The notes under the pieces were generated by a model. The model was not told where the DNA came from, searched no databases, and saw only the letters and a list, made by a program, of their open reading frames with translations. Of a stretch of 64,000 nt of DNA, positions 1 through 13,880 are shown one piece after another. Position 1 is the first letter of the stretch. Each line of letters begins with the position of its first letter. Location of the stretch: positions 111,419-175,418 of the forward strand of contig CACWXP010000003.1 in NCBI GenBank assembly GCA_902764875.1. Direction: 5' to 3'. The stretch comes from an uncultured Eubacteriales bacterium. Lineage in GTDB: Bacteria; Bacillota; Clostridia; Christensenellales; Aristaeellaceae. The position numbers and the translations under genes were made by a program.

Positions 1-2471
1 CCATCTTTTCCAAGGAAGCCCGCCTCACCTGGAACCGCACGGATCTGACCCTCGTGGACACCCCCGGCCATACCGATTTTTCCGGCGAAACCGAGCGCGC
101 CTTGAATGTTCTCGACGCCGCCGTCCTGGTCGTCAGCGCCGCCGACGGTGTCCAGTCCCACACCCGAACCCTCTGGCGCCTCCTGGAGCAGCGGAACATC
201 CCCGTCGTTTTCTTTCTGAATAAAACCGACCTTCCCCACGATCCGCAGGCCCTTTCCGCCTCCCTTCGCCGCGAGCTGTCCGATCAGATTGTTGAATTTC
301 CTTCCCCCGATCCGGAAAAGCTGGCCCTCTGCGATGAAACCTGCCTCGACGCCTATCTCCGGGAGGGCGAAGTCCCCTTCCGGCTCCTTCATTCCCTGGT
401 CGCCGCCCGAAAGGTGTTTCCCCTGTTCTCCGGTTCCGCCCTGCGGAACGAAGGCGTGGAACCCCTCCTGGATTTCCTCTCCCGCTTCGATCCCCGTCCC
501 ACCCCTTCCCCCGTTTTCGGTGCCCGGGTCTACAAGGTCGCCCGGGATCCCCAGGGGGCACGCCTGGCCTTCCTGCGTGTCACCGGCGGAACCCTGAAAG
601 CCCGCGATCTCCTGTCCCTCAAAACCCCGGAGGGCGAAACCCTCTGGGCAGAAAAAGCCGCCGAAATCCGCCTCTATTCCGGCGACCGTTACGCTGCCGT
701 CCAGGAAGTCCCCGCCGGCCAGGTCTGCTGCGTCGTGGGGCTCAGCAAGGCCCTCCCGGGCGACGGTCTCGGTTCCAATCCCGGCCGCAGGGAGCAGACC
801 CTCCGCCCCTGCTATGCCTGCCGCCTGGTCACGCCCCCCGGCGCCGATCTCCATTATGTCCTGAACTGCCTGGAAACCCTCGAGGAGGAAGAACCCCTGA
901 TTCAGGTGGAATATGTGGAACCCCGCCGGGAAATCCGCGTGCACTCCATGGGCGATGTGTATCTCGAAGTTCTCCGGGCCCAGCTGAAGGACCGCTTCGG
1001 CCTGGAGGTCTCCTTCGCGGAAAGCACCGTCCTTTACCGCGAAACCATCGAGGCCCCGGTGGAAGGAGCCGGCCACTATGAGCCCCTCCGCCATTATGCC
1101 GAGGTTCATCTGCTCCTCTCGCCCCTCCCCCGGGGCAGCGGCCTCGTCTGCGATTCCTCCCTCTCCACCGACGAACTCTCCCTGAACTGGCAGCGGCTCA
1201 TCGTCACCCATCTCCGTGAAAAGGTCCACGTCGGCGTCCTCACCGGTTCCCCCATCACCGATCTGCATATCACCCTCATCGCCGGCAAGGCCCATCTCAA
1301 GCACACCGAAGGCGGCGACTTCCGCCAGGCCACTTACCGCGCCCTGCGCCAGGGCCTCATGAAAGCGAAAAGCATCCTCCTGGAACCCTGGATGACCCTG
1401 GATCTCACCGTCCCCGAGGACTGCGTCGGCCGGGTCATGAGCGACCTCAGCCTCATGGGCGGCCGCTTCGACGCCCCGCAGGATGCCGGTGAAAACCTCC
1501 GCCGCCTGTCCGCCGCCGTGCCGGCTTCCGCCTGCGCCGATTACGGCCGCCAGCTGGCCGTCTTCACCAAAGGCCGCGGAAGCCTCTCCGCTTCGTTCCT
1601 GGATTGGGAGCCCTGCGCCGATCAGGAAAAGATCGTCCGGGAAAAGGGCTACGACCCCCGTCGCGATGTCTGGAACACCCCGGATTCTGTCTTCTGTTCC
1701 CATGGCGCCGGAACCGCCGTCCCCTGGGACGAAGCGGACGCCTTCATGCACCTGCCTTTTCAGAAGGATCTCGACCGCCGGGAAGTCCCGACCCCGGCCG
1801 CCGGCGGTGCCGCCGCGGCCTACCACGGAACCCGCGAAGAGGATCTGGCCCTGGAAAAAATCTTCGAGCGCACCTACGGTCCCGTCAAAGCCCGCCAGCT
1901 GGTGGCCCCTCCGACCGCCGCCGCGCAAAGGCAGCAGGATCCCGAAGAAAAATCCGTCTCCGACGGCGAAATCCTCCTCATCGACGGCTATAATGTTCTC
2001 CACGCCTGGGATGAATGGAAGCCTTTCCTCCAGGACCGCCTCGCCGACGCCCGCGATGCTCTGCGCGAGCTGATGTGCGATTATGCCGGCGCCACGGGCA
2101 AAGCCGTTATTCTGGTTTTTGATGCCTATGCCGTTCCGAACAACCCCGGAAAGGCGGAAAAATATAAAAATATCTATGTCGTCTATACCCGCGAGGCCCA
2201 GACAGCGGACGCCTTTATCGAGCAGACCACTTATTTCGGCCGGAACACCGCCCGCATCCGGGTGGTCACCTCCGACCGCCCCGAGCAGCTCATCGCCTCC
2301 GGCAACGCCGCCCTGCGCACCTCCGCCCGCGAATTCCACAAGGAGGTCAATCAGGTCCGCGACGGCATCGCCGCCTTCCTCTCCCGCAACAACCTCGCCC
2401 GCCCCGCGCGAACCCTTGAGGCAGCCTACAAGGAAGCCTGGAAAGCGAAAAAAAGGTCCGGCGAATCGTAA
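1..2471 (+). CDS. TetM/EF-G-family ribosome-associated GTPase fused to a C-terminal NYN (YacP-like) domain, 5' truncated
   Basis: The frame is open from base 3, so the true start lies upstream of the window; the GTG at 54 is the valine before the G3 motif DTPGHTDF. Visible after that are the G4 motif NKTD, a G5-like SGSA, then EF-G/TetM-like domains II to V, including the GVLTGSPITDLHITL stretch typical of domain IV. The last ~165 residues begin LLIDGYNVLHAW, the signature of NYN/YacP PIN-like RNases. Ribosomal protection proteins of the TetM group normally stop at about 640 residues; this one has over 820. The family moves tetracycline off ribosomes, but distant chromosomal relatives need not give resistance, so I infer a ribosome-acting GTPase with a possible RNase module. 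A promoter for the next operon follows its stop. Confidence 0.85.
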   Translation, partial: IFSKEARLTWNRTDLTLVDTPGHTDFSGETERALNVLDAAVLVVSAADGVQSHTRTLWRLLEQRNIPVVFFLNKTDLPHDPQALSASLRRELSDQIVEFPSPDPEKLALCDETCLDAYLREGEVPFRLLHSLVAARKVFPLFSGSALRNEGVEPLLDFLSRFDPRPTPSPVFGARVYKVARDPQGARLAFLRVTGGTLKARDLLSLKTPEGETLWAEKAAEIRLYSGDRYAAVQEVPAGQVCCVVGLSKALPGDGLGSNPGRREQTLRPCYACRLVTPPGADLHYVLNCLETLEEEEPLIQVEYVEPRREIRVHSMGDVYLEVLRAQLKDRFGLEVSFAESTVLYRETIEAPVEGAGHYEPLRHYAEVHLLLSPLPRGSGLVCDSSLSTDELSLNWQRLIVTHLREKVHVGVLTGSPITDLHITLIAGKAHLKHTEGGDFRQATYRALRQGLMKAKSILLEPWMTLDLTVPEDCVGRVMSDLSLMGGRFDAPQDAGENLRRLSAAVPASACADYGRQLAVFTKGRGSLSASFLDWEPCADQEKIVREKGYDPRRDVWNTPDSVFCSHGAGTAVPWDEADAFMHLPFQKDLDRREVPTPAAGGAAAAYHGTREEDLALEKIFERTYGPVKARQLVAPPTAAAQRQQDPEEKSVSDGEILLIDGYNVLHAWDEWKPFLQDRLADARDALRELMCDYAGATGKAVILVFDAYAVPNNPGKAEKYKNIYVVYTREAQTADAFIEQTTYFGRNTARIRVVTSDRPEQLIASGNAALRTSAREFHKEVNQVRDGIAAFLSRNNLARPARTLEAAYKEAWKAKKRSGES

Positions 2472-2509: not shown

Positions 2510-2538
2510 TTGAAAAAAGCGGACAGATCGTTTATCAT
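2510..2538 (+). promoter_or_regulatory. Sigma-A-type promoter of the TIR-LRR operon
   Basis: TTGAAA at 2510-2515 and TATCAT at 2533-2538 are separated by exactly 17 bases. They lie 60 bases before the first TIR gene and just after the stop of the GTPase gene. A GGAAAGG ribosome binding site follows at about 2580. Confidence 0.6.
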
Positions 2539-2597: not shown

Positions 2598-3704
2598 ATG
2601 AGCAAATTCAGTCGCAAATGCCCTCCCTACGAGGGCGCTGATCCGTATCTGTATTTTTGTTTCGCGGAAAAGGACAGCGAAGCTGTTTTCCCTTTGCTCG
2701 AGCATCTGATGCAGCGCGGCGTCCGCATCTGGTATCAGACGGACGTAACCGCCGATCTCGCCCGCCTCAATCACCAACAGGAGCGCATGAACAATGCCTC
2801 CCTCCTCGTCATTTATCTCACGGAGAACGCCCGGCACGACGAACGGGTGAAAAACTCCCTTCTCTATTATCAGCACGGCAAGCCGGTCATCGGCATCGAC
2901 ACCGACGACGGGGATAACGAACTCGCCTTCGGGCTCACCGCCGCCGCCCGCCATATCGACGGGCGCGTCGGCCGAAACCGGGAGGATCTGGAGGCGGAGC
3001 TGATCCGCACCGATGGCTTCTCCCAGGAGCTCATCGGCGATCCTCCCACGCCAAAGAACTGGCGGAAAAAGGCCGCCGTGTGGATCCTGGCCGCCGCCCT
3101 GATCGTCGCTGGCGTCGCGTATTACGGCTACCGGCAGTACGGTTGGTTCGTCACGCCCCTGCAGCAGGAGGAGCCCACCGTCTCCCCCACGCCCAGTCCC
3201 TCGCCCACCCCGTCGCCCACGCCGACGCCGACCCCGACACCCACGCCGACACCGACGCCGACCCCAACGCCCACGCCCACGCCCACGCCGACGCCGACCC
3301 CGACCCCGACACCCACGCCGCCCCCCAGCCCGACGCCGACCCCGTCCCCCACGCCGACGCCCACCCCTGTGCCGGATAGGATTCATTTCGAGGATCCGGA
3401 TTTCACCTCCGCCGTCCGCTGGACCGTGCAGAATGGCATCATCACCTCCAGATACCCGAACGATCCGGATTTCACCGCCGAATTCCGCGAAATGGTTCGC
3501 AACGGCATCATTGCGGAGGAAACCCTGAAGAAGATCACGACTCTCACCCTGAATCACCTGCCGGAAGATCTCTCCCTCCTGGAGCAGTATTTCCCGAATC
3601 TGCAGAAAATCAGGCTGCCCGAAAGCGAAGCGAAAAATGCGCTTTCAACCCTGAACGGCGCTTACGCGGTTGTCGTTCTGCCGAAGGGGGTGGATCTGCC
3701 GTGA
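2598..3704 (+). CDS. TIR-like domain / membrane helix / (Thr-Pro)n stalk / short LRR protein, first paralogue
   Basis: 368 residues. The N-terminal ~150 residues are a degenerate TIR fold: the opening [17 protein letters not shown] matches the [18 protein letters not shown] of the next gene, and RIWYQTD matches its RLWYDEG. Where the next protein has the putative catalytic Glu84, this one has Asn86 by eye alignment, so NADase activity is doubtful. A basic NWRKK precedes one hydrophobic helix (residues ~159-178), predicting a cytoplasmic N-terminus. A proline-threonine stalk (~196-259) follows, then ~110 residues with about one LRR-like unit ([16 protein letters not shown]). The stop overlaps the GTG of the next gene by four bases (GTGA), implying translational coupling. 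Role inferred: partner or regulatory subunit of the catalytic paralogue. Confidence 0.75.
3184..3372 (+). repeat. Hexanucleotide-type (Thr-Pro) coding microsatellite 1
   Basis: Imperfect tandem CCNACN units encode alternating Pro-Thr with a few Ser-Pro. Units are multiples of six bases, so slippage changes stalk length without shifting frame. The opposite strand reads as Gly-Val repeats, a shadow. Confidence 0.85.
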
Positions 3705-5092
3705 CCGAATTCTTCAAGCCCTATGAGGGCAAAAACCCCTATCTCTTTGTCAGCTACAGCCACCGGGATTCCGCCGCCGTCATCGATACCATCCGCCCCA
3801 TCCACGAGCAAAGATACCGCCTTTGGTACGACGAGGGCATCCCCGCCGGCAGCGACTGGCCAAGGAATATCGCAAACCATATGCGCGACTGCCGCATGGT
3901 CCTGTTCTTCATGAGCCGCACGGCCATCGCCTCGCCCAACTGTCTCAGCGAGATGACCACCGCGGCCAGGCAGAAAAAGCCCGTCCTTCTCCTGAGGCTG
4001 GAGGACATTCCGGAAAACGAGCTCCCCGCAAAATGGAAGGAGTGCCTCCGCACGGCCGTCGTCGTCGATTCCGCGCCCACCCCGGCGCAGCGGGCGGAGA
4101 ATATCCTTCGCTGTCCCCTGCTCAACGAGTCGTTCCTCGGTTCGAAGGAAGAGTTTGAAAGCAGCTCGGCCGGCGGCGGAAGGGGCAGTCTGACCGCCAC
4201 CGTGGCCATCGTTATCGCCAGCATTCTGCTCATCACCGCCCTGGGCGGCGTCGCGGGCCTCACCACCGGCATCATCAAGGTGTTTGAAACCCCGACCCCG
4301 GTGCCGACGGCAACGCCCAGCCCCACGCCAACCCCTACGCCGACGCCGACGCCCACGCCGACGCCAACGCCGACGCCGACCCCCACGCCAACGCCAACGC
4401 CGACGCCGACCCCCACGCCCACGCCGACACCGACGCCGACCCCCACGCCGACACCGACGCCAACCCCGACGCCGACCCCCACCCCGGTGCCGACGGAAAC
4501 GCCGACGCCCTATGTCTCGCCGGAGCCGCAGGCCAATATCCGCCAGACCGAAGGCGAGCTGAACCGGGTCGTCGATTTCACTGATAACCTGAAGCAGCAG
4601 GAGCGGGCCATCCGCCGGATTCTCGGCTCCGAGGAGGATCTCACCTACCGCGATCTGCATCAAATCACGGAAATCTATTTTGTGGGAACCATGTCCCCGG
4701 CCCGGCTCTCCGGCGTGGAGATCGCCCCCGACGGAACGGTCACCGTCAACGGCCCGGAGGTAAAGGAAGGTTCGGTCGCAAGTCTGGATCTGATCGCCGC
4801 CATGCCGTATCTGGAAAAGCTGGCGCTCATCAAACAGCCGCTCAGCGATCTTTCCGCCCTCGCCGGCATGACCCGCCTCCGGGAGGTCAACCTGGCCTGC
4901 AGCGCGGTTGCCGCTCTTCCGGAACTCACGAATATGCCGTCTCTCCGTTCCCTGAATCTGGCGCATACGGCCGTGAAGGATCTCACGCCCCTTCACAGCC
5001 TGCCGAATCTGGAAGAAGTCACCGTCAGCACCGATATGCTTCCGCTCACCCTTGATCCGGAAGCAACCTACGACGTCGTTTTGATTCAATAA
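3701..5092 (+). CDS. TIR domain / membrane helix / (Thr-Pro)n stalk / LRR protein, second paralogue, catalytic residue retained
   Basis: 463 residues from GTG 3701, with an AAGGGGGTGG ribosome binding site upstream. Residues 10-140 form a well-conserved bacterial TIR domain: [10 protein letters not shown] (beta A), [14 protein letters not shown] (BB-loop region), [19 protein letters not shown]. Glu84 within SPNCLSEM sits where TIR NADases (SARM1, plant TIRs, Thoeris ThsB) carry the catalytic glutamate. One membrane helix follows (~164-188), then the Pro-Thr stalk (~200-270), then about 190 residues with four or five internalin-like LRR units ([20 protein letters not shown] and similar). Predicted topology: TIR in the cytoplasm, LRR outside. 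Inferred role: the signal-output member of a three-protein receptor. I know of no characterised system of this exact layout; this is unverified. Confidence 0.82.
4297..4509 (+). repeat. Hexanucleotide-type (Thr-Pro) coding microsatellite 2
   Basis: Same imperfect CCNACN tandem array as in the neighbouring paralogues, encoding the stalk between membrane helix and LRR region of the second TIR protein. Confidence 0.85.
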
Positions 5093-5132
5093 AAACCAAA
5101 GAACGCACAACCTGTGCAGGGAGGCAACCGTC

Positions 5133-8100
5133 ATGAATAAACCTTACAGTGGAAACGCAAAGCCCTTCGTCCTGGCCCTTTTCTCGGAAAAGGATCGTGA
5201 AAAGGTCATCCCGGTGCTGGAAGCGCTGGAGAAAAAAGGCCTCACCCTCTGCGGCCAGGATGGCGCCGCCGCGGAAAAGCAGGCAAAAAAGGCCTGTACG
5301 ACGGTCACCTTCCTCAGTGAAAACTTCGCGAAGGATCGGGAAAAGCAGCAGGTTTTCTTCACCGCCGACGCCGCTCGCATGCCGATCATTCCCGTCAAGC
5401 TCGATAACGCAAAGCAGCCGGAAGTGCTCGAACGGTCCATCACCGCGAAAAATGCCATCATGGCGGAGCGGTATTCAACCCGGGAACTGGCGGACCGGAT
5501 CGCCGGCGCGGAAAGTCTCAATCCGCCTAAACTCACCGAGGCCCAGAAGAAGAGCAGCCGTCTCCACTTCGGCCTCATTCTGACCGCGGCCCTCGTCGCG
5601 CTGGCCGCCGCGGTTCTCCTGATCGGTAAGCAGCAGTGGGACTGGTTTGCTCCGCCGCCCACGCCCACCCCGACGGCAACGCCCACCCCAACGCCGACGC
5701 CCACGCCCACGCCGACCCCCACGCCGACGCCGACACCCACACCGACGCCCACGCCCACGCCGACCCCCACGCCGACGCCGACACCGACGCCGACCCCCAC
5801 GCCCACGCCGACCCCCACGCCGACGCCGACACCGACGCCGACCCCCACGCCGACGCCGACCCCAACCCCCACACCGACGCCAACGCCGACCCCAACCCCC
5901 ACGCCGATCCTCTCCCAGGCCATCACCGAGGAATTCGGCCTCACCGATCCGGATCTGCAAACCACCCGCGCGGTCACCATTATCGGCAAGGATTTCTATT
6001 TCTACGGCACCGGCGACGCCTACCGCTCCGTGAACCAGGTCGCCGACAGCGGCAACTATGTCGTCCGCACCTATCAGCACAATGATGTGCATTATTATCT
6101 GAAGGAAACCGGCGCCGAAGTGGAGCGCAAAACCTATTCGGATCTCGGCTTTCTCGGCCTCATGCCGAATCTGGAGGTCCTCAATCTTGTCTGCGCGGAT
6201 CTGCCGTCCATGCCGGATCTCTCTGCAACCCGTCTCCGTTCCGTTTCGATTCAAAATGCCAAAATCCCCGGCCTCAGCTGGCTGTCCAACACCTACGTCC
6301 AGGATCTCTCCCTCGAGGATATCCAGGACGGCCTGGACTACGCCTCCCTCACCGATTGCAACTTCCTGTATACGCTCAATCTGGATTTCGGTGACACAAC
6401 CACAGCGGATCTCAGTGCCCTCGCCCCGAAGAAGCTCCGGAGCATCGGCCTCTTCGGCTGTGCCTATCTGAATCCCATCCGTCTGGACGGCCTGGCCGCC
6501 TGTGCGGAACTCACCCGCGTGGAGTTCCGCGACGGTGCGCCCGTCAGCAATCTGAATTTCCTCGAAGGCAAAACAAAGGTCACTTCCGTCTGCGTCAACA
6601 GTTCCGATACCCTGGGCGATATCTCCGCCGTCTCCACCCTCACCAATCTGGAATACTTTGAAATCGACAACTGCCGCCAGATCGGCGATCTTTCCGTCCT
6701 CGCCTCCTGCGAAAAGCTCCGCTCCGTGAAGTACAGCGGCGGCTGGGGCACCGAGCTGCGCAGCGCGGATTTCCTGAAGGGAAAATCCCGCCTCTCCGAA
6801 GTCCATCTTTACAATGTCCGCCTCGCCAATCTCGATTTCCTCCGGGATGTGACCCCCGGCGTCGGTCTCAACCTCGCCGTCCATGGATCCGTCCGGGATT
6901 GGTCCGCCTTGACGGATGTCGGTCATTATCTCTGGCTCAGCCTCCGCGCCGAGGACGGAAACCTGGCTCCCATCCGTCCTTATCTCGATCAGCCGAAAAT
7001 CGACAATCTTGAGCTTTGCGATTTCAAAGGTCTCGATCTCTCCGTCCTCCCGGATGTCGGGCAGGAACTGCAGCTCGCCGGCTGCGATATGAAGGATCTC
7101 TCTGGTCTGCGGGAAATGAACATCCGTTATCTCCAGCTCTACGATCTGCCGAATCTCGCCTCCCTCAACGGCATCGAGGTTCTGCAGAAGGATACCGTCT
7201 TTGTCTCCCTGAAGGTGTTCGGCTGCCCCCGCCTCACGGACTGGTCCGCCCTGGAGGGCATGAATGTCAGCGAGCTGCAGCTCACCGGCACCTACACCAT
7301 GCCCAACCTCGAGGGTATCCAGCCCCGCCATCTGAAGCTGGACAGCCTCGACTGGCTGGAGGATCTTTCCTGCCTCAACACCCTGGATGAAACCAAGTAT
7401 TACAGATTCGATCTCCTCGGTCTCGATCTCGTCACAGATCTGTCCCCCCTCCGTCGCCTGCACGGCGGTGAACTCGTCGTCTCCCCGCCGCTCAGGGAGC
7501 AGGCCGAATCCCTCGTGGAGGAAGGTCGGTTCCAGTCTTGCACCGTGGAATATCCGAATTCCGGCTGGAATACCTGGAACAGCGAAGTCCGTCTCCAGAG
7601 TCTCGAAGAGCTGGACACCCTCCCTCTCTCCGCCCTGAAGAAGGTCACCGATCTCCAGCTTGCCGGCGACATCGTCGTGGATCCGGATGTCTTTGATCTC
7701 GATGATAACTGGGAAAACGATGAGCAGGTCTATTTCCTCCGCGACCGCGAAACCGATGAGGAAATCCGGGTGCAGCCCGGCACCATGCAGGATCTTACAA
7801 AGCTTGGCCAACTCACCGGCCTTAGAACTCTGAAGATCATCGCCCAGCCCATCGCCAGCCTCGAAGGCATCGATTCCCTGCAGGATCTGGAAGAAATCAA
7901 TCTCCGCAATTGTCAGAATCTGCAGGATATCTCCCGCCTCTTTATCCTCGAAAAAGTGCAGGATATCAATATTAACAACGCGCCTGTCTCCTCCATCCAG
8001 GGCATCCAGAATCTCACGTCTCTGCGTTCCCTCGATCTCACCGACACCCATGTCACCGATCTCTCTCCTCTCGCGGAGTGTGATTTCTCCGATGCCTACG

Positions 8101-10700
8101 CGCAGGAGGGCCTCACCCTCTGCGTCCGCAGCACCGTGCAGGTCGATGACTGGTCGCCCCTGGAGACCATCCGGAAGTTCAACTGCGTCAATCTCGATGA
8201 GTCCGAGTTTGACGTCTGGCTCCCGCATATGCAAAGTGCCGAAGTCACGCAGCTCTGCCTCGAGCGAATCCGCCGCAAGGAAGCGACGGACCTCTCCGTC
8301 CTCGGCTCCGTGAAGGCAAAGTCCCTCCGCCTCGACTCGATTGATTATCTCTCCAGCCTCCATGGTCTGGAGGATCTCATCGCCTCCGGTTCCCTGCAAA
8401 CGTTGGAAGTCCTCGGCTGCCCGCGCCTCACCGACTGGTCCGCCCTCGATGGCGGAACCCTCCCGAAGCTCTGGCTCTGGAGTGCCTTCTCTGTCCCGGA
8501 TCTGACAAACATGCACATCGGAACTCTCCGCCTGGAGCGGATGGACTGGCTCACGGATCTCTCGCCCCTCGAAACCCTCCCGAAGGAAGACGAAATCAAT
8601 GTGGAACTCGTCAACCTGGAGAATCTGAAGGATCTCAGCGCCCTCCGGCAGCTCAAAGGCAATCGTCTCGCGGTTTCCGAAAACCTCCTGCAGCAGGCCC
8701 GGACCGTGGTCAACAGCGGCGCCTTCAAATCCGTCGAAATTGCGGATGAAGACTGGTGGGGCGTCAGCAACAGTCAGTTCACCCTCACGAGTATGGAAGA
8801 GCTCGAATCCCTGCCGGAGAGCGTCCTCTCCAGGGTCACGCAGCTGTATATGGCCGGCGACCGCATCTACGACCGCAGCCGGTATAATATTGATGACGAC
8901 TGGAATAACGGTCACTTAACCATGCAGCTCCATGAATTTGAAACCGATGAACGCACGCCCGTCGAAAGAGGCTCCATGAAGAATCTGACCGTCTTCAGCA
9001 AGCTCACCGGCCTTCGGGAGCTGATTCTCGACTGCCAGTCCCTCACCTCCCTCGCCGGCATCGAAAACCTGGTTTCCCTCGAAAAGCTGGAAATCCGGGA
9101 TGCCCCGTCCCTCTCCGACGTCGGAGACCTCTGGCAGATGAAAAATCTCAGAATAATCATGTTCCAGTTCACCGACATCCACAGCATCGATGGTCTCCAG
9201 AACCTGAGGCAGCTGGAATCCCTGAAATTCTATGATGCCATTCCCGATATCTCCCCCCTCGCGAAGTGCGATTTCTCCCACGCCTATCAAAACGGCGGCC
9301 TCGATCTCTATCTGGAAACGGATTTCGATACCGATCTCTCGCCCCTGAAGAAGATCCGCGAGTACAGTCATCTCCAGCTGGACAATGACAAAATCGAGCG
9401 CTATCTGCCTTATGTGCAGAATGCCGTCGTCCATGAACTCCAGCTCAACGATATGGATCAGGGCACCGTCACCGCAGATCAGCTGCCAAAGGTCACCGAC
9501 CGTCTGGAGCTCCACCGCATCCCGTCTCTCACCAGCCTCGATGGTCTCAAGGCCCCTGGCCCCCGCACCATCCAGCTGGATAATATGACCAATCTCACGT
9601 CCGTCTCCGCCCTCAAACCGCTGATCAAAGAAGGCGGCGTCCGGGAACTCCGCGTCGGCGGCTGTCCCCGCGTTGCCGATTGGTCCGCCCTGGAGGGCGC
9701 CCCGCTGGAGAAGCTCGTCGTCTACGGCGATCTGGTCTTCCTCCCGCAAAGCCTGCAATCCATTGCCGAGCGCACCGAGGGCTGGAACGAGTGGTGGCAG
9801 GATGATGTCGCCTTCTCCCTTTCCAGCCTCGAAGAGCTGGAAAATCTCCCCGATTCCGCCCTGCAGGGCGTCTCCGAATTGAACATCGCCGCCGGCGAGT
9901 TCTTCGACAGCAGTCAGTTTGAGCTCGGGGAAAACTGGAACGGCAACGGACCCCAGCCGGTCCTCCGCAACCGCGAAACCGGCGAGGAAACCCGGCTCAA
10001 AATGCCGAAGGAAGCGGACTGGAGCTTCCTGAATCATTCCCTCCCGAATATGAAGAATCTCACCTTTGCCGTCATGCCCGTCACAGATCTGGAACCCCTC
10101 CGTTCCCTGCCAGGCATGAAGTCCCTGGATCTTCGGTTCTGCACAAAGCTGAAGGATATCACTGCCCTCAACGAAATGCTCGATCTCGAGGAGCTCCTCC
10201 TGGACAGCACCGCCGTCACCGATCTGTCGCCGCTCAAGGGAAAAACAAAATACAGAAACCTCAGTTTCAACAACACGAAGATCACGGATTTCAGCGCCCT
10301 CGCGGAGTGTGATTTCTCTTATGCAGCCAACGAATGCGGCGGCCTCTGCATCAATATCGATAACAAAAATATAAAGGACTTCTCCTTCCTCGCCGCCTGT
10401 CCGAAATACGATTGGATGGGAATGGGCGGCATCAATCCGGATAAGTGGCTCCAGCATATCGAAAACGTGCAAATCTGCGGAATCTTCTTCGGAACCTGCA
10501 ATCAAAAGCAATTCCAGGCATTCATTGAAAACCATCCGGAAATTGAAAATCTGCATATCCAGGGAACCCAGATCACGGACCTCTCCATGCTCCCCGCCCT
10601 GCAGCATCTGCGGTATGTTCGAATTTCCCCGAATATGAAAAAAGCCCTCGCCAGCCTGGAGGGTCTGGATTATTCCTTCGAACTGGAGATCAATAACTGA
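5133..10700 (+). CDS. Giant TIR-like / membrane helix / (Thr-Pro)n stalk / LRR protein, third paralogue
   Basis: 1855 residues; ATG with AGGGAGG upstream. Residues 1-130 are a diverged TIR-like domain ([30 protein letters not shown]); the catalytic position is Val74 by eye alignment. A membrane helix lies at ~145-166 and the Pro-Thr stalk at ~175-259. The remaining ~1590 residues are internalin-like LRRs (for example [29 protein letters not shown]). Inside it three long modules recur, each opened by a Trp-rich segment and a SLEELxxLP unit, near residues 811, 1209 and 1551. No sorting signal or second membrane segment was seen at the C-terminus, so the LRR part would be held only by the N-terminal helix. 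Inferred role: the main ligand-sensing subunit of the cluster. A strong terminator follows 16 bases later. Confidence 0.8.
5656..5907 (+). repeat. Hexanucleotide-type (Thr-Pro) coding microsatellite 3
   Basis: The longest of the three Pro-Thr arrays (about 85 codons). Units such as CCGACG, CCCACG and CCGACA alternate, with blocks repeated nearly exactly, which indicates recent slippage or unequal exchange. Confidence 0.85.
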
Positions 10701-10715
10701 TCCCCGGATCGGCGC

Positions 10716-10755
10716 GAAAAGAGTTCCGTGCATGAACCCGCACGGAACTCTTTTC
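10716..10755 (+). terminator. Intrinsic terminator of the TIR-LRR operon
   Basis: A perfect 16-bp stem (10716-10731 with 10740-10755) encloses an 8-base loop. The 3' arm ends in CTTTTC, and the 5' arm begins GAAAAG, so it can also act for the opposite strand. Confidence 0.85.
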
Positions 10756-10778: not shown

Positions 10779-11105
10779 TCATCCCCCAACCAAAGCGTCA
10801 TAGGTCACCCCGTATTTCACGGCGATCTCCCGTGCAAAGGATTTCCCCTCCGGCGGCGCAATCTTCACCCGGATCTCCGGGTGCCGCAGCATGTCCTCAA
10901 ACACGCCGCACCGGAAGGCCGTCACCGCCGGATCCGCCGTCAGGCTCCGCATCACCTGCGCAATCATCATCTGTTTCTGCGGAACAGCGGTCAGCTTTTC
11001 GTTCAGCGCGTCCAGTCCCAGGTCGTGCCACGTTTCTTCCGAAATCATCCGGTATTCAACCCGCTCCTGGTCCGGAAACAGCAGGCTCAGTTTGTTGTTT
11101 TTCAT
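10779..11105 (-). pseudogene. MutS-like protein with large internal deletion
   Basis: 108 residues. The first ~80 resemble the start of the MutS-related family seen in Clostridia: an N-terminal SLLFPDQE, then TADPAVTAFRCGVFEDMLRHP, close in style to the usual DPxVIxYRxxVFxDL of the MutS core. It then jumps directly to GKSFAREIAVKYGVTYDALV, which looks like the end of a MutS/MutS2 ATPase domain (GxSxAxxIAxxxGL). The Walker motifs and everything between are missing. I read it as an in-frame internal deletion of several hundred codons. It still has a consensus promoter, so a short protein may be made. Family recall only; alternative: an unrelated small protein. Confidence 0.5.
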
Positions 11106-11311: not shown

Positions 11312-11575
11312 AATTTCATAACAGGCGATGACGAAGACGGAACAGCGGGAGGCCCCGCAGAGAGCCGGGATTGGTGCGAACCGGCGGGCTGAAGCTTCAT
11401 CCCATCCCTTCCGAGCCGGAGATCCGAACGGAGCTGATTCTGAGTAGGCGTCTCCCGTGAATGCTGCGTGAATGCATAGGGCATGACAGTGCCTGAAGAG
11501 GTGTGGAAACACACAATTTGAGTGGTACCGCGAGTCGAACCGACCCGTCTCAAAGCTGAGACGGGCCGTTTTATT
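11312..11575 (+). promoter_or_regulatory. T-box leader (tRNA-sensing riboswitch)
   Basis: The leader has a GATGACGAAGACGG start typical of the stem I base, an AGAGAGCC then GGTGCGAACCGG distal stem I loop, and the diagnostic T-box TGAGTGGTACCGCG at 11519-11532. An intrinsic terminator follows (11544-11565 stem), and the acyl-CoA synthetase starts at 11607. T-boxes let transcription continue when the cognate tRNA is uncharged. The specifier codon could not be fixed by eye; candidates after GAAGC are TTC (11396-11398, Phe) and ATC (11399-11401 or 11404-11406, Ile). Confidence 0.88.
11544..11575 (+). terminator. T-box regulated terminator
   Basis: A perfect 9-bp stem CCCGTCTCA/TGAGACGGG with a 4-base loop, followed by CCGTTTTATTTC. 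It competes with the antiterminator formed by the T-box sequence. Confidence 0.8.
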
Positions 11576-11606: not shown

Positions 11607-13880
11607 ATGACAACCCAGACAGACCTCAATCAACTGAGCGCCATCGCTGCGCGACTGCGGGAGATGCGGGAGATTCTCGGCTGGACGCCGGAGGACATGG
11701 CGGAGAAAACCGAGGTGACGCCCGAGGAATACCGGCTGTACGAAGCCGGCCGGACGGACCTGCCGTTCACCTTCATCTACAAGGCGGCGCAGGCCTTCAA
11801 CATGGAACTGACGGAGCTGCTGGAAGGGCACAACGCCTTCCTGACCACCTATACGGTGACCCGGCGGGGCAAGGGCGAATCCACCGCGCGGGAGGAAGGC
11901 ATCGCCATTTCCAACCTGGCGCCTAAATTCCGGGACAAGAAGGCCGAGCCCTACTGGGTGCGCTATGAATACTCCGAGAAGGCGCAGAACGAGCCGATCC
12001 ACCTGACGACCCACACGGGCCAGGAATTTGACCTGGTGCTGCAGGGAAGCATGAAGGTGCAGGTCGGCAACCACACGGAAATCCTGCACGAAGGCGACAG
12101 CATCTACTACAATTCCTCCCTGCCCCACGGTATGATCGCGGTGGAGGGCAAGGACTGCGTGTTCGTGGCGGTGGTGCTGCCCGGGGAAGCGCCGCAGCCT
12201 GTTGAGGAAGTCGCGGCCGCGCCGGCCCCTGCCAGGGAGGAAGCGGCCCACCTGGTGGCCTCGAAGTTCATCGACGCCAAAGAGGATGCGCAGGGCCGGC
12301 TGACGGCCATCTCCTTCCCGAACGCGGAGACGTTCAACTTCGGCTTCGACATCGTGGACGGGATTGCGCGGGCCTATCCGGACAAGCTGGCGATGCTCTA
12401 CGTCGACAAGCACCACGAAGAGCGGCGCTTCACCTTCAAGGACATCAAGGACGCCAGCAACCAGTGCGCCAACTACTTTACCTCCCTGGGCATCCGGCGG
12501 GGGGACCGGGTGATGCTGGTGCTGAAGCGGCATTATCAGTTCTGGTTCTCAATGGTGGCGCTGCACAAGCTGGGGGCCATCGCCATTCCGGCGACAAACC
12601 AGCTGAAGGAGCACGACTTTGAATACCGGTTCAACTCCGCCGGGGTCAAGGCTCTGATCTGCACGGCGGACGGCGACACGGCGGAGATTGCCGAGCGGGC
12701 TGCGAAGAACTGCCCCAGCGTTCAGACGCTGATCATGGTGAACGGGAACCGGGAAGGCTGGCACGACTTCAACGCGGAATACCCGCTGTTCACCCGGCGG
12801 TACCACCGGCCGGAGGACGCCAGCTGCGGCGACGAGCCGGCGCTGATGTTCTTTACCAGCGGAACGACGGGCAACCCGAAGATGGCGCAGCACAAGCACA
12901 CCTATGCCCTGGGGCACTACGTGACGGCGAAGTACTGGCACTGCTGCGAGCGGGACGGGCTCCACTATACCATTTCCGATACCGGATGGGGCAAATCCCT
13001 CTGGGGAAAGCTTTACGGCCAATGGCTTTGCGAAGGCGCGGTGTTCGTATACGACTTTGACAAGTTTGACGCGGCGGACATTCTGCCGATGTTCAAGAAA
13101 TACAATATTACAACGTTCTGCGCGCCGCCCACGATGCTGCGGATGTTCATCAAGGTGGACCTGGCGAACTATGACCTGAGCTCCATTCACCATATGACCA
13201 CCGCCGGCGAAGCGCTGAACCCCGAGGTTTTCCGCCAGTTCGAAAAGGCGACCGGGCTGAAGATTATGGAAGGCTTCGGCCAGACGGAGACGACGCTGAC
13301 AATCGGCAACCTTTACGGCGGCGTGCCGAAGATCGGCTCCATGGGCAAGGCGAACCCGCAGTACGACGTGGACATCGTGGACCCGGAGGGGAACCCCGTT
13401 GCCAACGGCGAAGTGGGCGAGATCGTAATTCACACGGACAAGGGCGCACCCTGCGGGCTGTTCAGGGAATACTACCTGGACGAGGAAAAGACGAAGGAAG
13501 CCTGGTACGACGGGCTGTACCACACCGGCGACACGGCCTGGCGGGATGAGGACGGATACTTCTGGTACGTCAGCCGGATTGACGACGTGATCAAGTCCTC
13601 GGGCTACCGGATCGGACCGTTTGAAATTGAGAGCGTGATCATGGAGCTGCCCTACGTGCTCGAATGCGGCGTAAGCGCCGAACCGGACGAGATTCGCGGG
13701 CAGATCGTGAAGGCTTCCATCGTGCTGGTGAAGGGCACCGAAGGCACGGAGGAACTGAAGAAGGAAATTCAGCAGTACGTGAAGGAGCACACCGCGCCCT
13801 ACAAGTATCCGCGGAAGATCGTCTTCCGGGAGGAACTGCCAAAGACGATTTCCGGAAAGATTCAGCGGAATCTGCTGTGA
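11607..13880 (+). CDS. XRE-cupin regulator domain fused to AMP-dependent acyl-CoA synthetase
   Basis: 757 residues. Residues ~8-68 are an XRE helix-turn-helix, ~105-195 a cupin (HTGQEFDLVLQGSMKVQVG, HEGDSIYYNSSLPH), and ~235-757 an ANL-superfamily CoA ligase. The ligase has the P-loop FFTSGTTGNPKM (~416), the A5-like EGFGQTET, the A8 GYRIGPFEIES and the catalytic lysine in ISGKIQR near the end. It makes an acyl-CoA from a carboxylate, ATP and CoA in the cytoplasm. The T-box leader suggests that the acyl-CoA feeds amino-acid synthesis, as in reductive carboxylation of 2-methylbutyrate or phenylacetate known from rumen bacteria; that is inference. Codons here are richer in CTG/GAG than in the neighbours, suggesting high expression or different origin. 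Confidence 0.85.
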   Translation: MTTQTDLNQLSAIAARLREMREILGWTPEDMAEKTEVTPEEYRLYEAGRTDLPFTFIYKAAQAFNMELTELLEGHNAFLTTYTVTRRGKGESTAREEGIAISNLAPKFRDKKAEPYWVRYEYSEKAQNEPIHLTTHTGQEFDLVLQGSMKVQVGNHTEILHEGDSIYYNSSLPHGMIAVEGKDCVFVAVVLPGEAPQPVEEVAAAPAPAREEAAHLVASKFIDAKEDAQGRLTAISFPNAETFNFGFDIVDGIARAYPDKLAMLYVDKHHEERRFTFKDIKDASNQCANYFTSLGIRRGDRVMLVLKRHYQFWFSMVALHKLGAIAIPATNQLKEHDFEYRFNSAGVKALICTADGDTAEIAERAAKNCPSVQTLIMVNGNREGWHDFNAEYPLFTRRYHRPEDASCGDEPALMFFTSGTTGNPKMAQHKHTYALGHYVTAKYWHCCERDGLHYTISDTGWGKSLWGKLYGQWLCEGAVFVYDFDKFDAADILPMFKKYNITTFCAPPTMLRMFIKVDLANYDLSSIHHMTTAGEALNPEVFRQFEKATGLKIMEGFGQTETTLTIGNLYGGVPKIGSMGKANPQYDVDIVDPEGNPVANGEVGEIVIHTDKGAPCGLFREYYLDEEKTKEAWYDGLYHTGDTAWRDEDGYFWYVSRIDDVIKSSGYRIGPFEIESVIMELPYVLECGVSAEPDEIRGQIVKASIVLVKGTEGTEELKKEIQQYVKEHTAPYKYPRKIVFREELPKTISGKIQRNLL

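What the first reader, a model, noticed from the sequence alone, without database searches (positions are those of the whole stretch)
2598..10700. Three-gene operon with bacterial Toll-like-receptor topology (TIR in, LRR out)
Seen: each of three tandem genes encodes an N-terminal TIR-like domain, a basic stretch, one membrane helix, a (Thr-Pro)n stalk and a C-terminal LRR region, with coupled starts, own promoter and terminator. Positive charge before the helix predicts TIR in the cytoplasm and LRR outside. Known: bacterial TIR domains are NAD+-cleaving or signal-making in Thoeris and related defence; eukaryotic TLRs join an outer LRR to an inner TIR. Inference: a multi-subunit surface receptor converting LRR binding into NAD signalling, in reversed domain order. 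It could serve phage, neighbour or host sensing.
Basis: partly seen in the sequence, partly recalled or inferred. Interest (0 to 1): 0.88.

Follow-up and report, generated by a model that had tools for sequence, protein, structure and literature searches.

The report
Outward-facing LRR receptor operon with TIRs
A gut-type bacterium carries three linked genes for membrane proteins that look like a Toll-like receptor built backwards, and in related bacteria this receptor set sits beside genes that may respond to and regulate the chemical alarm signal it makes.

Summary
The three genes exist as described: A 2598-3704, B 3701-5092, C 5133-10700. Each has an N-terminal TIR-type domain, one membrane helix, a Thr-Pro stalk and an outer part. 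Corrections: only B keeps the putative catalytic Glu of TIR NADases (6/6 genomes); A (6/6) and C (7/7) lack it, so they are pseudo-TIRs. C's TIR shows only by fold; A has no Pfam LRR match. Topology is supported by hydropathy only: the N-side of the helix is more basic in 18/19 proteins.

New: the A-B-C order recurs in five other genomes of the order (two from another family). All five have, next to it, a SLOG-SLATT-like gene (D), an HD-RyR-like gene (E), or both; the window's genome has E-D elsewhere. D/E loci lie near TIR genes far above chance (11/23 within 10 kb, 0.46 expected), with differing receptors (LRR, WD40-like, TPR). The cassette fills a site that is empty in six relatives. Within the genus the outer parts diverge faster than the TIR parts.

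Best reading: an outward-facing LRR sensor complex makes an NAD-derived messenger that gates a SLOG-SLATT channel and is curbed by E. Mechanism inferred, untested; ligand unknown.

The parts
2598..3704 (+). Gene A, 368 aa: pseudo-TIR - TM - Thr-Pro stalk - short outer domain
   Evidence: ORF; TIR_2 23.5 bits, below cut-off 28; no Glu at the catalytic column in 6 of 6 orthologues
2655..2972 (+). TIR-like domain of A
   Evidence: TIR_2 residues 20-125; model's first match is a plant TIR
3072..3131 (+). Membrane helix of A, preceded by KNWRKK
   Evidence: hydropathy
3183..3374 (+). Pro/Thr/Ser stalk of A
   Evidence: DNA repeat
3701..5092 (+). Gene B, 463 aa: catalytic-type TIR - TM - Thr-Pro stalk - LRR
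   Evidence: TIR_2 58.6 bits, LRR_4 36.4 bits; GTG start overlaps the end of A by 4 nt
3746..4027 (+). TIR domain of B
   Evidence: TIR_2 residues 16-109
3950..3952 (+). Codon of the putative catalytic Glu84 of B (S-P-N-C-L-S-E)
   Evidence: invariant in 6 of 6 orthologues; aligns with a Glu of CRISPR-associated TIR Cat1
4202..4258 (+). Membrane helix of B
4313..4492 (+). Thr-Pro stalk of B
4493..5089 (+). LRR outer domain of B
   Evidence: LRR_4, internalin-type LRR models, alignment A8
5133..10700 (+). Gene C, 1855 aa: pseudo-TIR - TM - Thr-Pro stalk - very long LRR region
   Evidence: ORF; LRR_4 95.3 bits, LRR_EndoS 94.5 bits
5169..5504 (+). TIR-fold domain of C, no catalytic Glu
   Evidence: model pLDDT 73.5, pTM 0.73; Foldseek top matches TIR domains; no Glu in 7 of 7
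5568..5624 (+). Membrane helix of C, preceded by KKSSRLH
5679..5906 (+). Thr-Pro stalk of C
5907..10697 (+). LRR outer domain of C, about 1600 aa
10716..10755 (+). Terminator-type hairpin after C (16 bp stem, 8 nt loop)
   Evidence: MFE -31 kcal/mol, z -5.58
2510..2538 (+). Possible sigma-70 promoter (TTGAAA-17-TATCAT)
   Evidence: 10 of 12 matches, but the number of sites is at chance level

Best explanation
A-B-C encode a membrane sensor complex with the domain order of a Toll-like receptor turned round: TIR domains in the cytoplasm, one helix each, Thr-Pro stalks that reach through the cell wall, and LRR domains outside. C (about 1600 aa of LRR) is probably the main ligand-binding chain. 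B is the only enzyme subunit. A and C carry pseudo-TIRs that would hold or release B's TIR. Ligand binding outside would bring the TIRs into an active assembly, and B would cleave NAD+ to a cyclic or linear ADP-ribose product. That product would bind the SLOG-like domain of D and open its SLATT membrane part, causing depolarisation or dormancy. E (HD-like plus RyR-like domains) would bind or break down the messenger and so set threshold and recovery. Shown here: gene order, domains, one hydrophobic helix, loss of the Glu in A and C, conservation of A-B-C in six genomes, linkage of D and E with TIR genes, the occupied and empty chromosomal site, and faster divergence of the outer domains within the genus. 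Inferred: NAD cleavage, the messenger, D opening, E's role, and the ligand class (phage or neighbouring cell surface).
For: B has an intact TIR with invariant S-P-N-C-x-S-E, and its Glu aligns with one of Cat1. A and C orthologues lack the Glu in 6 of 6 and 7 of 7 yet model as TIR-type folds. One TM in 19 of 19; N-side more basic in 18 of 19. A-B-C is conserved in 6 genomes. D and/or E is adjacent in all five relatives. D is present in 5 of 6 and E in 6 of 6 A-B-C genomes, against 9 and 13 of the other 144 (Fisher 2e-5 and 2e-6, not corrected for relatedness). 11 of 23 D/E loci have an above-cut-off TIR within 10 kb, 0.46 expected. D: DUF4231/SLATT above cut-off in L047, weaker elsewhere, and SLOG-type motifs. 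E: the short form beside A-B-C in G147 has RyR above cut-off (50.7 bits); the long form aligns to it, with H589, W592 and D661 invariant in 18 of 18. A phage RyR-domain enzyme cleaves 2'/3'cADPR with a His-Asp dyad (PMC13232231, parts 1-2 of 6 read). Within the genus, excluding the close pair G038-G033, N-domain identity is 71-79 (A), 64-67 (B) and 76-86 (C) per cent against outer-domain 32-48, 46-52 and 36-48; the two C copies of G016 are 99 against 36.
Against: In the window itself neither D nor E is next to A-B-C; they lie on another contig. D and E also occur without A-B-C (9 of 14 and 13 of 19 genomes), and 12 of 23 D/E loci have no TIR within 10 kb (some lie near contig ends). D was not found in G016, whose assembly is 60% complete. 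The RyR and HD labels of the long E form are weak: 10 of 14 members match Pfam RyR (best 4.4e-4) and 4 of 14 match HD (best 7.6e-4), L056 itself stays below the RyR cut-off, and a profile of the 14 long forms alone finds no RyR structure; the 9.7e-17 PDB match rests on the four short members of that alignment. The SLOG match of D is below Pfam's cut-off and PDB gives no D relative. A TIR-LRR_5 protein (L052) and a TIR-DUF6273 protein (L053) of the order have no helix, so LRR need not mean outside. C's outer domain is rich in Cys (1.1-1.9%); ten exported proteins of the clade, picked by eye, range from 0 to 4.1%, so this is not diagnostic. The mapping of E's His-Asp to the phage enzyme is by motif spacing, without its sequence. 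Across families the outer domains are no more divergent than the TIRs. Nothing was tested at the bench.
Confidence: 0.45

Rival explanations
1. NAD-depletion abortive system: B simply destroys NAD+ on activation and kills or stalls the cell; D and E belong to other TIR systems and are neighbours only because defence genes cluster.
For: D and E are not adjacent in the window's genome; D/E occur without A-B-C in 9 of 14 and 13 of 19 genomes.
Against: All five relatives with A-B-C have D or E at the same locus. In G015 the same site holds E with a different TIR-LRR receptor, so E seems retained while the receptor changes.
Confidence: 0.24
2. Kin or neighbour recognition (allorecognition) receptor rather than anti-phage sensor, using the same TIR to SLOG-SLATT output (a choice of ligand within the best explanation, so its odds overlap with it).
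For: Outer domains diverge faster than the TIR parts within the genus; two C copies in G016 share a 99% identical N-part but 36% identical outer domains; stalked LRRs suit contact sensing.
Against: Phage sensors may diversify in the same way; I did not look for a polymorphic ligand gene.
Confidence: 0.3
3. Surface adhesins of the internalin type that happen to carry cytoplasmic TIR scaffolds, with no enzymatic output.
For: Internalin LRR models match B and C; A and C TIRs lack the catalytic Glu.
Against: B's catalytic motif is invariant across two families, and the linkage of TIR genes with D and E points to nucleotide signalling.
Confidence: 0.1
4. The hydrophobic segment does not export the LRR; the proteins are membrane-tethered with LRR inside and respond to intracellular ligands.
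For: High Cys content of C's LRR; a related TIR-LRR_5 protein (L052) as well as TIR-FHA, TIR-FtsK and TIR-DUF6273 proteins in the order have no helix.
Against: One helix only, so TIR and LRR should be on opposite sides; positive-inside 18 of 19; Pro-Thr stalks right after the helix; all 19 A/B/C proteins keep the helix.
Confidence: 0.1

Closest known systems
Animal Toll-like receptors
   Same: LRR ectodomain, one membrane helix, cytoplasmic TIR domain, several chains (works like)
   Different: Domain order reversed (TIR N-terminal), no signal peptide, Pro-Thr stalk, an enzyme-type TIR in one chain; the LRRs resemble bacterial internalins. Not a member.
Thoeris (ThsB TIR with a SLOG-bearing effector; the SLOG part is recalled)
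   Same: TIR with catalytic Glu paired, in relatives, with a gene that has SLOG-type motifs; RyR domains act on Thoeris messengers (PMC13232231, parts read)
   Different: Receptor is membrane-anchored with an outer LRR and has two pseudo-TIR partners; effector is SLOG-SLATT-like; no SIR2 seen; PADLOC gives ThsB only 16.7 bits for B
TIR / SLOG / SLATT nucleotide-centred conflict systems (Burroughs et al. 2015, recalled, not held; cited in passages of PMC7159879 and PMC9503650)
   Same: TIR gene near a 2TM SLATT gene, predicted nucleotide-gated pore effector
   Different: The passages that I saw mention no outward LRR receptor triad and no HD-RyR partner
RyDEP phage RyR-domain proteins (PMC13232231)
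   Same: RyR family; a His-x-x-Trp and a later Asp that E also keeps (18 of 18)
   Different: RyDEP is a phage anti-defence protein; E is a cellular protein with an added HD-like part, linked to TIR genes; RyR score of the long form is weak
Listeria internalins
   Same: LRR_4-type repeats
   Different: B and C score far below the curated cut-offs; TIR and TM at the N-terminus

Membership tests
Bacterial TIR family (TIR_2) | Pfam TIR_2 match above cut-off | tested here: met
   B 58.6 bits against 28; A 23.5 below; C none
Bacterial TIR family (TIR_2) | Catalytic Glu | tested here: met
   B yes in 6 of 6; A 0 of 6 and C 0 of 7
Bacterial TIR family (TIR_2) | NAD+ cleavage | not testable with these tools
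   needs enzyme assay
Toll-like receptor | N-terminal LRR ectodomain, TM, C-terminal TIR | tested here: not met
   order is TIR-TM-stalk-LRR
Toll-like receptor | TIR inside and LRR outside | tested here: inconclusive
   one TM in 19 of 19, N-side more basic in 18 of 19; no experiment
Thoeris | ThsB-type TIR gene | tested here: inconclusive
   ThsB_TIR 12.8 bits below cut-off 21.2; PADLOC ThsB 16.7 bits
Thoeris | Adjacent effector with SLOG sensor domain (recalled) | tested here: inconclusive
   not in the window; D beside A-B-C in three relatives (L045, L046, L047), SLOG match below Pfam cut-off in L045 and L047 and not listed for L046
Thoeris | SIR2 NADase effector (type I, recalled) | tested here: not met
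   no SIR2 in the Pfam results for the D and E proteins scanned
Thoeris | Anti-phage activity | not tested
   needs phage challenge
SLATT / DUF4231 effector (gene D) | Pfam DUF4231 above cut-off | tested here: inconclusive
   L047 28.6 bits above 24.7; L046 18.1, L045 14.0 and L056 20.4 below
RyR domain (gene E, short form of G147) | Pfam RyR above cut-off | tested here: met
   L047 50.7 bits above 27.4
RyR domain (gene E, long form, including the own genome's) | Pfam RyR above cut-off, or profile match to RyR structures | tested here: inconclusive
   10 of 14 match RyR, best E 4.4e-4; L056 15.3 bits below 27.4; no PDB RyR match with the 14 long forms alone; His589, Trp592, Asp661 kept in 18 of 18 of the mixed alignment and in the 14 long forms
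HD hydrolase (gene E) | Pfam HD above cut-off; H...HD...D residues | tested here: inconclusive
   4 of 14 match HD, best E 7.6e-4; H149/H152, H204-D205 and D381 invariant in the 14 long forms; which residues bind metal is my reading
Internalin | NCBIfam internalin model above its curated cut-off | tested here: not met
   C 100 bits against 1050 for InlH; B 27.6

The most novel reading that the evidence does not exclude
A true bacterial counterpart of Toll-like receptor signalling: a three-chain surface LRR receptor (one enzyme TIR, two pseudo-TIRs) that turns an extracellular cue into an ADP-ribose-type second messenger, read by a SLOG-SLATT channel and switched off by an HD-RyR enzyme, with exchangeable outer sensors (LRR, BspA-type LRR, WD40-like) plugged into the same effector pair.
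Probability: 0.35. Interest if true: 0.92.

Novelty: new variant of a known kind. Interest (0 to 1): 0.77.

Why it matters
The bacterial TIR defence systems that I know of (recalled) sense infection inside the cell. This would be an outward-looking, multi-subunit TIR receptor with a genetically linked messenger reader and a messenger-controlling enzyme. It would make testable how TIR enzymes are controlled by pseudo-TIR partners, what cellular (not phage) RyR-type domains do, and whether TLR-like logic arose independently in bacteria. The exchange of outer domains beside a shared effector pair would be a modular sensor toolkit.

Tried and rejected
Tried: PADLOC on A, B, C, D and E gave no convincing assignment: PD-T4-6 matches to A, B and C lie over the TM and low-complexity stalk, B has a 16.7-bit ThsB match, and one D (L047) has 10-16-bit matches to KwaA and to 2TM/4TM effectors. 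NCBIfam GltJ and SslE matches likewise cover the stalk. Rfam on the window at gathering thresholds: none. Promoter scan: not above chance. A simple LRR motif count did not work and self-BLAST of C at 1e-8 gave no repeat pair. Cys content as a test of export: not diagnostic. PDB search with D: one chance-level match. The A-profile search in 391 genomes of the class (drawn evenly from a larger group) found only the own genome strongly; eight others gave 39.8-64 bits, read here as generic TIRs and not followed up. Literature: in the listings I saw no paper on a bacterial TIR-TM-LRR receptor operon; the library lacks most subscription papers and Burroughs 2015. Passages of PMC7016017 and PMC13142454 added nothing on this point. 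Rejected: internalin membership, Thoeris membership as a whole, TLR membership (order reversed).

I therefore lowered the best explanation from 0.50 to 0.45 and the novel case from 0.38 to 0.35. The helix-free TIR-LRR_5 and TIR-DUF6273 proteins were added as contrary evidence, and the G047 neighbour was scanned.

Rows left out: of the 24 matches, 13 lie in the 11 regions fetched, one is the window, and three (G015, G017, G088) were fetched; the other seven were not examined for architecture. The nine below-cut-off TIR rows were left out of the count (52 of 61 rows used). G124 (an E match) was not in that count.
Full report
What is there. The window is G000:C3:111419-175418 of a 3.27 Mb assembly. 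The G038 contig with the operon has the same length (124,743 bases) and match identity as L043, a MAG titled uncultured Clostridiales bacterium RUG13884, so they are evidently the same record; 'rumen' is my reading of the RUG label. The three ORFs are at the stated places. B has a good TIR_2 match (58.6 bits) and LRR_4 (36.4 bits). A has TIR_2 below cut-off (23.5 bits) and no LRR. C has LRR matches (95 bits) and no Pfam TIR. A and B overlap by 4 nt; C starts 40 bp after B. A strong hairpin follows C (10716-10755, z -5.58); the promoter match is at chance level.

Are A and C TIRs? I modelled both N-domains from six-row alignments of window and L043 sequences. Both gave alpha/beta folds with mean pLDDT of about 73 and pTM of 0.73-0.74. 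Foldseek puts TIR domains first for C: BtpA 1.1e-5, AbTir 1.6e-5 with TM 0.66, B. cereus TIR 2.5e-5. For A the list is weaker and mixed: RPS4 TIR 2.5e-4, then DNPH1 and SPARTA TIR. So A and C are TIR-type but degenerate. In the alignment of 19 N-domains the Glu column is Glu in 6 of 6 B, and Ser/Thr/Arg or Val/Ala/Ile in 6 of 6 A and 7 of 7 C. The B Glu aligns with one of the CRISPR-associated TIR Cat1. That this is the catalytic residue of TIR NADases is established knowledge, recalled.

Topology. A hydropathy scan gives one helix after the TIR in all 19 A/B/C proteins, and in 18 of 19 the N-side has more Lys+Arg; in four of the six B proteins the net charge on that side is negative. Of ten other TIR proteins of the order scanned, two fused to intracellular-type domains (FHA, FtsK) have no helix, but neither have a TIR-LRR_5 (L052) and a TIR-DUF6273 protein (L053). 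So the helix is not universal among TIR-LRR proteins there. Cys content is not decisive.

Relatives. A search of 150 related genomes with B's TIR+TM found matches in 18, own genome included. In the loci fetched from these, the complete A-B-C order is present in six: G000, G016, G033, G038 (one genus) and G147, G098 (another family of the order). G016 has two C genes. A profile of A's N-domain, run over 391 genomes drawn from the class, matched strongly only the own genome (275.9 bits); eight other genomes matched at 39.8-64 bits.

Linked genes. Beside A-B-C: G033 has D downstream and then E convergent; G038 has D, overlapping the end of C; G147 has a RyR gene and then D; G016 has E upstream, divergent; G098 has E upstream. 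D (about 530 aa) has an N-terminal region with SLOG-like motifs, then DUF4231/SLATT (28.6 bits in L047 against a cut-off of 24.7; 14-20 bits in three others), hydrophobic helices and many invariant positions over 12 sequences. E occurs in a long form (about 680 aa) and a short one (about 575 aa). The short one beside A-B-C in G147 has RyR above cut-off. The long form aligns with it and keeps His589, Trp592 and Asp661 in the 18-row alignment, but its own RyR and HD matches are weak: 10 and 4 of 14 members, best E 4.4e-4 and 7.6e-4. The PDB match of the 18-row profile (6uhi, 9.7e-17) disappears when only the 14 long forms are used. [quoted passage not shown] mapping these onto E rests on motif spacing only. 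The window's genome has an E-D pair without internal stops on contig C1, and I saw no TIR in the 20 kb read there.

Statistics. D occurs in 14 and E in 19 of 150 genomes; in A-B-C genomes 5 of 6 and 6 of 6. Fisher tests ignore relatedness. Merged into 23 loci in 20 genomes, D/E have an above-cut-off TIR within 10 kb in 11 (0.46 expected) and within 5 kb in 7 (0.26 expected) (TIR positions). Five of the 11 are A-B-C itself. The other six are TIR with a helix and WD40-like repeats (G004, G020, G044; the repeat matches are above Pfam cut-offs in G004, at the cut-off in G020 and below in G044), TIR-TM-BspA-LRR (G015) and TIR-TPR (G060, G047). Twelve loci have no TIR nearby.

Chromosomal site. In G016 and G033 the cassette sits between a diacylglycerol-kinase-like gene (named by eye) and an ABC transporter pair; in G038 the flanks are split, with A-B-C-D beside one and E beside the other. 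G015 has E and a different TIR-LRR receptor at this site. In six of seven same-genus genomes fetched (G040, G002, G008, G001, G035, G022) the two flanking genes are direct neighbours, an empty site; the seventh, G012, lacks the transporter there. In the window's genome the kinase was not found at E 1e-40, and A-B-C lies between a Tet-like/NYN gene and an acyl-CoA synthetase. In G012 the same neighbours flank an EAL gene and a MutS-like gene instead. So the operon is gained and lost and sits at different sites.

Divergence. Between same-genus orthologues, leaving out the close pair G038-G033, N-domains share 71-79% (A), 64-67% (B) and 76-86% (C) and outer domains 32-48%, 46-52% and 36-48%; the close pair shows 93/80, 85/80 and 91/67. 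The two C genes of G016 share 99% of the N-domain but 36% outside. Across families both parts are similarly diverged, so the contrast is only recent.

Mechanism. The evidence fits an outer LRR sensor that controls one enzyme TIR through two pseudo-TIRs, makes an NAD-derived messenger, and acts through a SLOG-SLATT membrane effector, with the HD-RyR-like protein as regulator. Everything after 'TIR with intact Glu' is inference. I give the whole chain 0.45, the topology about 0.85 and NAD processing by B about 0.75.

Known or new. It works like a TLR but is not one: the order is reversed and the LRRs are of internalin type. It uses Thoeris-like parts, but the Thoeris profiles were weak and SIR2 was not met. 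TIR-SLATT neighbourhoods are in print (passages of PMC7159879 and PMC9503650). Passages of two TIR surveys (PMC7075850, PMC9153377) name animal LRR receptors and bacterial TIR with TPR, WD40 or NBD, but none that I saw names a bacterial membrane TIR-LRR receptor. The listings of my ten literature searches (one more was rejected for its wording) showed none; the library is incomplete.

Noticed in passing
window 11319-11555 (+): T-box leader-like RNA (66.9 bits, E 1.8e-14, below Rfam's gathering score of 93) directly upstream of a fused HTH-cupin-acyl-CoA synthetase gene (11607-13880), an unusual target for a tRNA-sensing T-box.
   Followed up: partly
window 54-2471 (+) as listed; the open frame begins before the window: Tet(M)/EF-G-like ribosomal protection GTPase fused to a C-terminal YacP-like NYN domain; as cut by the window edge it scores far below the resistance-model cut-offs, and relatives occur in 40 of 45 genus genomes.
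   Followed up: partly
window 10779-11105 (-): 108-aa ORF whose DNA matches only the two ends of a 585-aa MutS-like gene (MutS_V) of relative G012 at the same place: apparently an internally deleted remnant.
   Followed up: partly
L106:10122-11783 (-), G036: A second gene with RyR-like C-terminus directly beside E, without the HD-like part.
   Followed up: no
L103:345-9419 (-), G060: Gene run E, TIR-TPR, protein kinase with weak TPR matches, D, with no helix in the TIR protein: perhaps a soluble version of the same module.
   Followed up: partly
L049:8459-9910 (-), G047: TIR - one helix - trypsin-like domain protein: a membrane TIR with a probable outside protease domain.
   Followed up: no
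L052:8163-9755 (-), G097: TIR fused to BspA-type LRR without any hydrophobic helix: a soluble TIR-LRR.
   Followed up: partly
G000:C2:142288-144120: Another long ORF of the own genome matching the Thr-Pro stalk of B in several stretches.
   Followed up: no
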